Assembly: GCA_004570315.1 (NCBI GenBank)
Contig: SPQI01000347.1
Span: 1 to 45,972, forward strand
Origin: Oxalobacteraceae bacterium OM1
Lineage (GTDB): Bacteria > Pseudomonadota > Gammaproteobacteria > Burkholderiales > Burkholderiaceae_D
DNA: 45,972 nt
Reading direction: 5' to 3'
In this document: positions 21,065 through 23,135 of the stretch, one piece after another
Position numbering within the stretch: the stretch's first letter is position 1
Layout: every line of letters begins with the position of its first letter
Translations under genes and position numbers: made by a program
The notes under the pieces: generated by a model
The model's database searches: none
Seen by the model: the letters and a program-made list of their open reading frames with translations, nothing else
What the model was told of the DNA's origin: nothing

Positions 21065-21748
21065 ATGTCCCTGCTCTGGCAAGCCCGCTTTTTCACGACG
21101 GTCAACCATCTGAGGGACTTGCCCAAACTGCAAGTCCCCGAACTCGCTTTCGCCGGCCGCTCCAACGCCGGCAAGTCGACCGCGATCAACATCCTGTGCA
21201 ACCAGAAACGCTTGGCCTTCGCCTCGAAGACGCCCGGCCGGACTCAGCACATCAACTACTTTTCGCTCGGCGGCGCGCACGTCGCCCAGCATCGCAAGGA
21301 CGCCACCAGGGTGGACGAAATCCGCGCCCTGCTGGTCGACCTCCCGGGCTACGGCTATGCGGAAGTGCCGGGCGAAGCGAAGCTGCATTGGAACCAGCTG
21401 CTAGGTAACTACGTCCAATCCCGCGAACAACTGGCCGGGCTGGTGCTGATCATGGATAGTCGCCGCCCGTTCACCGACCTCGACGTGCAGATGCTGGAGT
21501 GGTTCGCCCCCACGGGCAAGCCGGTCCACTGCCTGCTCACCAAGGCCGACAAGCTCAACCGCAACGAATCGACGAACGCCCTGCGGCAGGCCCGCACGGT
21601 GCTGGGCAGCTACGTCGACGCCTCCGGTCAGCCGTTCCCGTTTTCCGTACAGCTCTTCTCGGCACTGAAGCGCATCGGCATCGAAGAGGCCGACGCGAAG
21701 ATCCAGGAGTTGTTGGGTTTCTCCGAAGAGCAATCCGCAGCTGAGTAG
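21065..21748 (+). CDS. yihA: Ribosome-biogenesis GTPase YihA/YsxC (EngB)
   Basis: 227-residue TRAFAC GTPase needed for assembly of the large ribosomal subunit. G1 is GRSNAGKS (31-38), the G2 region is [14 protein letters not shown]3 is DLPGYG (92-97), G4 is TKAD (159-162), and the G5-like [12 protein letters not shown] follows. There is no helicase or KH extension, as expected for this family. It is divergent from the cytochrome c4 gene. The gap contains the palindrome TTGTACAA (21010-21017), which gives a TACAAT-like -10 on either strand. Confidence 0.95.
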
Positions 21749-21808
21749 CCGCACCCGTCAGAGAAAACGTGAGCGAATCCGAAGGAGAGCAAGCGATTCG
21801 GAGAGCGG

Positions 21809-21930
21809 GCCCCTGCCCAGTGCGTTGCGCAATGGTCTGAGGTCGGGTTCGAGAAGCGCAGTCGTACTTGAGTACGACGAGCATCGCAGGACCCGAGATC
21901 GGGCCATTTCGCAACGCAATGGGCAGGGGC
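21809..21930. repeat. Long imperfect palindrome (122 nt)
   Basis: The outer arms are GCCCCTGCCCA (21809-21819) and TGGGCAGGGGC (21920-21930). Inside them TGCGTTGCG pairs with CGCAACGCA, then TCGGGT with ACCCGA. At the centre GTCGTACT (21861-21868) pairs with AGTACGAC (21871-21878) around a 2-nt loop. Mismatches and internal loops lie between the blocks. It does not end in a T run on the plus strand, so it is not a simple terminator for yihA. It may be a dispersed intergenic repeat of this lineage. I cannot test copy number from one window. Confidence 0.6.
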
Positions 21931-21967
21931 AAAAAAAAACCCTGGAGAAAGGGGAAGATCTCCAGGG
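21931..21967 (-). terminator. Strong minus-strand terminator of the candidate sRNA
   Basis: Perfect 9-bp stem CCCTGGAGA / TCTCCAGGG with a 10-nt loop and nine T on the minus strand. It is one of the strongest intrinsic terminators in the window, yet no minus-strand CDS precedes it before hemB. Confidence 0.85.
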
Positions 21968-22045
21968 CAGTAACGCCTTATCGCTAATGCCACGATAGGC
22001 CCCGCTCAGGGAGGAGAAGCGGGAGGTGAGTGATCACCTAATGCT
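21931..22045 (-). ncRNA. Candidate structured small RNA antisense to the hemB leader
   Basis: Read on the minus strand there are four consecutive hairpins: AGGTGA/TCACCT (22024-22039); CCCGCT/AGCGGG (22001-22023) with an 11-nt loop UCUCCUCCCUG; GCCTATCG/CGATAAGGC with one bulge (21975-22000); and a terminator stem CCCTGGAGA/TCTCCAGGG (21940-21967) with loop UCUUCCCCUU, then nine U (21931-21939). No minus-strand protein gene lies upstream, so the terminator needs an RNA of its own. C/U-rich loops complementary to GGAGG are a known feature of several bacterial base-pairing RNAs. The 5' end and promoter are not identified. An alternative reading is a hemB 5' leader element on the plus strand, but the plus strand lacks a T run after the strong stem. 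A computational motif called the hemB RNA has been reported upstream of hemB in Betaproteobacteria, and this may be the same element. Confidence 0.6.
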
Positions 22046-22094
22046 GAGACGGAAGCCGGCCGGGAAAGTTCATCATTGCTACGAAAATTTTTAA

Positions 22095-23135
<1,041 letters not shown>

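What the first reader, a model, noticed from the sequence alone, without database searches (positions are those of the whole stretch)
21931..22045. Structured small RNA antisense to the hemB leader, with an anti-Shine-Dalgarno loop
Seen: four tandem hairpins on the minus strand. The last is a 9-bp stem followed by nine T, an intrinsic terminator with no minus-strand gene ahead of it. The second hairpin displays UCUCCUCCCUG in its loop and the terminator loop is UCUUCCCCUU. Known: loops of this type occur in base-pairing RNAs such as rhizobial and Rhodobacter CU-rich sRNAs and neisserial sibling sRNAs, and a computational hemB RNA motif has been described upstream of hemB in Betaproteobacteria. 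Inference: an independent sRNA on the strand opposite hemB, possibly tying haem supply to other mRNAs.
Basis: partly seen in the sequence, partly recalled or inferred. Interest (0 to 1): 0.72.

Follow-up and report, generated by a model that had tools for sequence, protein, structure and literature searches.

The report
Known small RNA with stress promoter
This is a small regulatory RNA of a known family found in many related bacteria; the DNA in front of it suggests that a cell-envelope stress signal switches it on, rather than that it exists to control the haem gene it is named after.

Summary
Window 22045-21931 (minus) folds into four tandem hairpins ending in an intrinsic terminator (z -5.6). 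It matches Rfam RF02837 'anti-hemB' (60.2 bits, cut-off 49.5). A Burkholderia cenocepacia relative, ncS04, is published as a 105-nt transcript reported to bind Hfq (passages). So the family is known.

Two results go further. The link to hemB is positional and optional: of 157 copies read, 122 lie opposite hemB, 16 beside yihA with no hemB in the fetched flank, 19 beside neither. And 128 of 156 copies have an ECF/sigmaE-type promoter motif (GAAC/GAAAC, about 16 bases, TC-N-A) at the right distance, about 3 expected (pattern relaxed after a stricter one gave 93 of 157). 24 of 34 copies without hemB keep it. A looser form precedes rpoE itself in 22 of 30 loci.

Best reading: a trans-acting, probably Hfq-dependent and sigmaE-controlled sRNA whose almost invariant CCUCCC loop pairs with Shine-Dalgarno sequences. 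A haem role is unsupported. No target was established (porin test negative), and the published relative showed no significant change in the tabulated conditions.

The parts
22066..22071 (-). -35 element GAACTT of an ECF/sigmaE-type promoter
   Evidence: exact site (the same pattern has 10 sites in the own genome, 4 for the reversed control); motif class present in 128 of 156 copies, about 3 expected
22045..22049 (-). -10 element TCTCA, spacer 16
21931..22039 (-). anti-hemB sRNA (RF02837), predicted transcript of about 109 nt; 5' end inferred
   Evidence: cmscan 60.2 bits over 21932-22026; fold z -5.6; start inferred from the -10 position and the published 105-nt length of ncS04
22024..22039 (-). 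hairpin 1 (AGGUGA/UCACCU), varies between lineages with pairing kept
   Evidence: 4 of 6 pairs with two-sided changes in the family set; all 6 across the order
22001..22023 (-). hairpin 2, stem CCCGCU/AGCGGG
   Evidence: stem almost invariant in the family; its 3 consensus pairs show two-sided changes across the order around a near-constant loop
22007..22017 (-). anti-Shine-Dalgarno loop UCUCCUCCCUG, proposed pairing site
   Evidence: CCUCCC in 111 of 113 copies
21975..22000 (-). hairpin 3
   Evidence: 6 of 9 pairs with two-sided changes in the family set
21931..21968 (-). hairpin 4, intrinsic terminator with CU-rich loop UCUUCCCCUU and nine U
22122..23135 (+). hemB (ALAD), divergent neighbour
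   Evidence: PF00490, E 1.2e-140
21065..21748 (+). yihA (engB) GTPase, convergent neighbour
   Evidence: PF01926 (the name yihA is recalled); neighbour in 130 of 157 copies

Best explanation
The feature is an anti-hemB sRNA gene (Rfam RF02837). The host is probably one of the Oxalobacteraceae: own-family loci are identical in this stretch to named Paucimonas and Noviherbaspirillum records. Shown by sequence: a conserved unit of promoter motif, 5' hairpin, CCUCCC-loop hairpin, third hairpin and U-tailed terminator, read on the minus strand, that often keeps its form away from hemB. Inferred: transcription by an ECF sigma factor of the RpoE (sigmaE) type in most Betaproteobacteria, with a sigma70-like extended -10 promoter taking over in part of Burkholderia. 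Inferred: with Hfq on the U-tail, the CU-rich loop (and perhaps the CCCC of the terminator loop) pairs with purine-rich ribosome-binding sites of several mRNAs and lowers their translation under envelope stress, working like MicA/RybB of E. coli (recalled) or the CU-rich double-hairpin RNAs of Burkholderia. Its place between yihA and hemB would be an inherited address, not its function.
For: RF02837 match. Published ncS04: 105 nt, TSS, 3'RACE, a Northern panel, Hfq co-purification (passages). Covariation; strand asymmetry. Near-invariant loop. Order-wide presence: 190 of 300 genomes over the cut-off. Context: 122 of 157 copies opposite hemB, none on the hemB strand, 13 on the yihA strand without hemB, 3 opposite yihA without hemB, 19 with neither; in 3 of 6 hemB-less loci looked at, response-regulator ORFs resembling pilG/pilH follow instead. 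Multi-copy genomes, tandem copies included. Promoter motif: 128 of 156 copies; mononucleotide shuffles predict 2.9, random windows 2.8; 104 of 122 hemB-linked, 12 of 15 yihA-only, 12 of 19 neither. A matrix trained on 36 of 43 family loci finds 50 of 113 held-out copies above the 99% point of dinucleotide shuffles. rpoE upstream regions carry the same class of site, by a looser pattern and without a shuffle control, in 22 of 30 loci; the own genome has RpoE (TIGR02939, 321.8 bits). In B. cenocepacia the published length puts the TSS 6 nt beyond the homologous -10.
Against: ncS04 showed no significant qPCR change in biofilm, stationary phase, starvation, glucose medium, osmotic stress, low pH or low iron, and short stress exposures including SDS and H2O2 largely did not induce sRNAs. 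The B. cenocepacia promoter lacks the motif, which may explain this but was not tested. 28 of 156 copies lack the motif, and 63 of 113 held-out copies fell below the family-trained threshold. The pattern was relaxed after seeing the sequences. The strict pattern GAACTT-N16/17-TCTNA is not rare: 10 sites in the own genome, 4 for the control. The sigma factor is not identified; the own genome has further ECF-like genes. The one direct target test failed: porin start regions against background p = 0.087, or 0.60 against best-of-starts.
Confidence: 0.6

Rival explanations
1. A cis-antisense regulator of hemB: the sRNA pairs with a long hemB leader, or its transcription interferes with the hemB promoter, and so tunes haem synthesis.
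For: 122 of 157 copies lie opposite hemB, the model's 5' end 60-249 nt from the estimated start in all but two (31 and 909); a review says hemB was predicted as a target of Bc7 (passage).
Against: 35 of 157 copies have no hemB in the fetched flank, 13 of them turned to the yihA strand. The gap varies and in the window is 83 nt from the predicted TSS. The loop does not favour the hemB start region (-7.3). Low iron did not change ncS04.
Confidence: 0.12
2. A housekeeping sRNA from an ordinary promoter; the sigmaE-like motif is a lineage accident or is read by another factor.
For: No significant change of ncS04. Extended -10 TGGTATATGATA instead of the motif in B. cenocepacia, B. ambifaria, B. 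ubonensis and some other Burkholderia and Trinickia loci. sigma70-like boxes in a few other lineages.
Against: 128 of 156 copies share the two-box motif against about 3 expected, including 24 of 34 copies without hemB.
Confidence: 0.18
3. A plus-strand hemB leader structure whose mirror image looks like an sRNA.
For: The plus strand also folds better than its shuffles (z -3.37).
Against: G-U against A-C counts favour minus (65 to 14, 138 to 37), though not on the misaligned projection (205 to 183). The U-tract follows the minus strand only. Copies without hemB exist. Transcripts of the relative were reported in the orientation opposite to both neighbours.
Confidence: 0.03

Closest known systems
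Rfam RF02837 anti-hemB (Burkholderia RNA 7; ncS04 of B. cenocepacia; Anti-hemB of B. pseudomallei)
   Same: Full-length match over the gathering score, same gene context, same loop and terminator architecture.
   Different: The window copy has a sigmaE-type promoter motif; B. cenocepacia and close relatives have an extended -10 form instead. Longer third hairpin and a terminator loop with CCCCUU.
RF02278 Betaproteobacteria toxic sRNA / double-hairpin RNAs (ncS27, BdhR1) and Bordetella S17
   Same: CU-rich loop facing ribosome-binding sites and U-tailed terminator (passages); the RF02837 model weakly hits several own-genome RF02278 places.
   Different: About 60 nt, two hairpins, multi-copy; the 6 own-genome places checked score -1.6 to -11.1 on the promoter matrix, threshold 10.1. 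The window does not match RF02278 at its cut-off.
Alphaproteobacterial ar14 (RF02344) and CU-rich 'cuckoo'/CcsR sRNAs (the latter two recalled)
   Same: CCUCCUCCC-type loop in a hairpin; control by stress sigma factors in Rhodobacter is recalled.
   Different: ar14 scores 20.4 bits against a cut-off of 58.8; not a member.
MicA, RybB, MicL of enterobacteria (recalled)
   Same: Proposed logic: RpoE-type promoter, Hfq, trans repression.
   Different: No sequence homology tested or claimed; porin repression not supported here.

Membership tests
RF02837 anti-hemB | Covariance-model score above the gathering score | tested here: met
   60.2 against 49.5 bits, model 1-81 of 81
RF02837 anti-hemB | Location opposite and upstream of hemB | tested here: met
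   hemB at 22122 (+), sRNA on minus
RF02837 anti-hemB | Expressed as a discrete Hfq-associated transcript | not testable with these tools
   Published for ncS04 (passages); not for this organism
RpoE (sigmaE) regulon sRNAs | GAACTT-N16/17-TCTNA-type promoter at the start site | tested here: met
   22071-22045; motif class in 128 of 156 copies
RpoE (sigmaE) regulon sRNAs | Transcription depends on rpoE | not testable with these tools
   Needs a mutant; the published Burkholderia relative showed no significant change in the tabulated conditions
RpoE (sigmaE) regulon sRNAs | Represses outer membrane protein mRNAs | tested here: inconclusive
   Porin start regions not clearly better than background; 2 Pfam-confirmed porins and 1 just under the cut-off among 46 perfect-SD candidate ORFs
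RF02278 double-hairpin sRNA | Score above the gathering score | tested here: not met
   No match at the gathering cut-off in the window
ar14 (RF02344) | Score above the gathering score | tested here: not met
   20.4 against 58.8 bits

The most novel reading that the evidence does not exclude
anti-hemB is the sigmaE-dependent envelope-stress sRNA of Betaproteobacteria: an ancient promoter-plus-sRNA cassette that moves and duplicates as a unit and represses many mRNAs through one near-invariant anti-SD loop, with part of Burkholderia having rewired it to constitutive transcription.
Probability: 0.45. Interest if true: 0.65.

Novelty: new member of a known kind. Interest (0 to 1): 0.48.

Why it matters
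The family's name ties it to haem, and the passages I saw assign it no established function. If the promoter evidence holds, the name misleads and the sRNA becomes a directly testable candidate for an RpoE-controlled sRNA arm in Betaproteobacteria. None of the titles listed by my three searches on that subject (one listed, 12 of 29 listed, none) concerns one; I did not open those papers. A promoter change in Burkholderia would also explain why the one species studied showed no regulation.

Tried and rejected
Haem/hemB antisense role: rejected as the main function because 35 of 157 copies lack hemB in the fetched flank and the loop does not favour the hemB start.

Porin targets: 30 genus porin loci, 29 scored, 1 (L436) without a usable ATG. 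Loop-duplex energy mean -7.43 against -6.60 for 41 window ORFs, p 0.087; against best-of-starts (-7.70) p 0.60. At least one porin start (L443) looks misplaced, and the background ORFs are uncurated; the one with the strongest energy (195 aa at 2126) has no Pfam match and is probably spurious.

Conserved perfect-SD targets: GGGAGGAG-N3-10-ATG has 9 sites in the own genome, reversed control 1. For GGGAGGAGA-N2-9-ATG, 76 of the 78 matches in 19 genomes were fetched; 46 ORFs of at least 60 aa were clustered; the largest clusters have 3 members, so no clear common target.

Mistakes corrected: the first hemB translation was out of frame (redone in 43); the first structure projection was off by one (redone in 63); MAFFT misplaces hairpin 3 of the window against other lineages, so the RNAalifold consensus was used there. 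A first, stricter promoter pattern gave 93 of 157; the relaxed pattern was chosen after seeing those sequences, so its 128 of 156 is partly post hoc, although shuffles and random windows used the same pattern.

Dropped rows: alignment A1 holds 43 own-family copies; A2 holds 113 of the 157 copies; 1 of 157 was left out and 1 of 114 (upstream stretch too short). The copies fetched are mostly the best-scoring ones, not a random sample.

Papers: passages only for PMC3521395, PMC5688073 (sections 7 and 8 read whole), PMC6515984, PMC6321483, PMC2864571, PMC11722255, PMC6337395, PMC4603805, PMC13414033; PMC7011215, PMC10175445 and PMC10987360 were searched for terms without a hit. MicA/RybB/MicL, CcsR and cuckoo RNAs and the sigmaE consensus are recalled.

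Full report
What is there. The minus strand of 22045-21931 folds into four hairpins with z -5.61; the plus strand gives -3.37. The last hairpin has a 9-bp stem, a CU-rich loop and nine U. cmscan against all 4227 Rfam families gives one match at the gathering score in the whole window: RF02837 anti-hemB, 21932-22026 minus, 60.2 bits, E 1e-11. The flanking genes are yihA and hemB, both on plus. A simple scan found no sigma70-type promoter in 21600-22300.

What is known. B. pseudomallei Anti-hemB was listed as a trans-acting RNA among sRNAs with Rfam homologues (passage). B. cenocepacia ncS04, 105 nt, lies between BCAL0264 and BCAL0265, opposite in orientation to both, as here. It was mapped by dRNA-seq and 3'RACE, appears in a Northern panel, and was reported as Hfq-bound (passages). 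Its level did not change significantly in any condition of the paper's qPCR table. A review reports hemB as a predicted target of Bc7 (passage). Three papers in the library hold the term 'anti-hemB', one of them for an antibody; none holds 'RF02837'.

Reality and strand. In 43 own-family loci the window's own structure keeps 96.3% of cells paired, with 14 two-sided pairs and 62 two-sided cells against shuffle means of 6.5 and 13.8; slid versions reach at most 8 pairs and 20 cells. Across the order (113 copies) 18 of 19 RNAalifold pairs show two-sided changes, while CCUCCC stays in 111 of 113. The stem of hairpin 2 changes in whole blocks in some lineages (for example CACG/CGUG) around the loop. 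G-U cells exceed A-C cells 65 to 14 and 138 to 37, as expected if the minus-strand RNA is the functional one. Both structures were predicted on that strand, which leans the count; without the two pairs that are G-U in the window the first is 39 to 11, and on a projection with hairpin 3 misaligned the count was 205 to 183.

Distribution and context. 190 of 300 order genomes and 81 of 145 family genomes have a match over the cut-off; none of 14 control genomes does. Of 157 copies read with their flanks, 114 lie between yihA and hemB opposite both, 8 opposite hemB with yihA not found, 13 on the same strand as yihA without hemB, 3 opposite yihA without hemB, and 19 with neither. Absence means not within about 1.3-1.5 kb or before the contig end. 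In 3 of 6 hemB-less loci looked at, response-regulator ORFs resembling pilG/pilH follow (named by eye). Some genomes have several copies (G234 six, four over the cut-off), and tandem copies occur. This argues against a role that needs pairing with the hemB transcript.

Promoter. Upstream of the sRNA in most family loci stands GAA(A)CTTTT, about 16 bases, TCNNA. In the window it is GAACTT 22071-22066 and TCTCA 22049-22045; the strict pattern has 10 sites in the whole genome against 4 for the reversed control, so a single site alone would prove little. Over all copies 128 of 156 have the motif class at the right distance; mononucleotide shuffles predict 2.9 and random windows from the same loci 2.8. 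The classes are 104 of 122 hemB-linked, 12 of 15 yihA-only and 12 of 19 neither. A matrix trained on 36 family loci picks 50 of 113 held-out copies at a 1% null rate; many of the rest carry GGAACTAAT-like variants or lack it. The own genome has RpoE, and in 22 of 30 rpoE loci of the family, the window's own genome among them, a site of the same class by a looser pattern lies at a nearly fixed place before rpoE, as expected of an autoregulated RpoE. I therefore read the sRNA promoter as sigmaE-type; which ECF factor reads it is inferred.

Exceptions are informative. B. cenocepacia, B. ambifaria, B. ubonensis and some other Burkholderia loci have GGAACCCTT or similar followed by TGGTATATGATA, an extended -10 form, and no matching pair of boxes, whereas many Paraburkholderia loci combine GGAAACTTTT with TGGTATATCATA. 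Counting the published 105 nt back from the U-tract in a B. cenocepacia record leaves 6 nt between this -10 and the TSS, which anchors the promoter position experimentally in a relative. A promoter change may be why ncS04 looked constitutive; this is inference.

Mechanism. Shown: near-invariant loop, conserved terminator, conserved promoter-like element; published: Hfq association of a relative. Inferred: loop pairing with Shine-Dalgarno sequences. Attempts to name targets failed or stayed weak: porin starts do not differ clearly from background, and perfect-SD candidates share no dominant orthologue, although two related porins in two genomes and one more just under the Pfam cut-off are among 46. 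The hemB start region is not a preferred site.

Verdict. The finding is real and belongs to a known family. Its value lies in the reinterpretation: an order-wide, probably sigmaE-controlled, trans-acting sRNA rather than a haem antisense RNA. No title or passage that I saw in searches makes that link; most listed papers were not opened, and the library lacks most subscription papers.

Noticed in passing
window 21809-21932: A 120-bp near-perfect palindrome (fold z -11.4, -91 kcal/mol) fills most of the gap between the yihA stop and the sRNA terminator. Its 56-bp core occurs once more in the own genome (C295, 86%) and a 38-bp piece (89%) in L165 near its sRNA.
   Followed up: partly
G000 contigs C101:5915, C147:4673, C115:7111 (L168-L170): The own genome carries three RF02278 double-hairpin sRNAs over the cut-off, and a weaker match about 500 bp away on C147.
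   Followed up: partly
L074, L076, L082: Tandem anti-hemB copies starting 178-184 bp apart, with no hemB in the fetched stretch, resembling sibling sRNAs.
   Followed up: partly
L032, L093, L108, L232 upstream of the sRNA: In this lineage the sigmaE-like motif is missing and a sequence containing TGTCTTGGACATA stands there, which looks like a regulator's operator.
   Followed up: no
L036, L103, L026: The sRNA lies downstream of yihA on the same strand and ahead of response-regulator ORFs resembling pilG/pilH, with no hemB in the stretch.
   Followed up: partly
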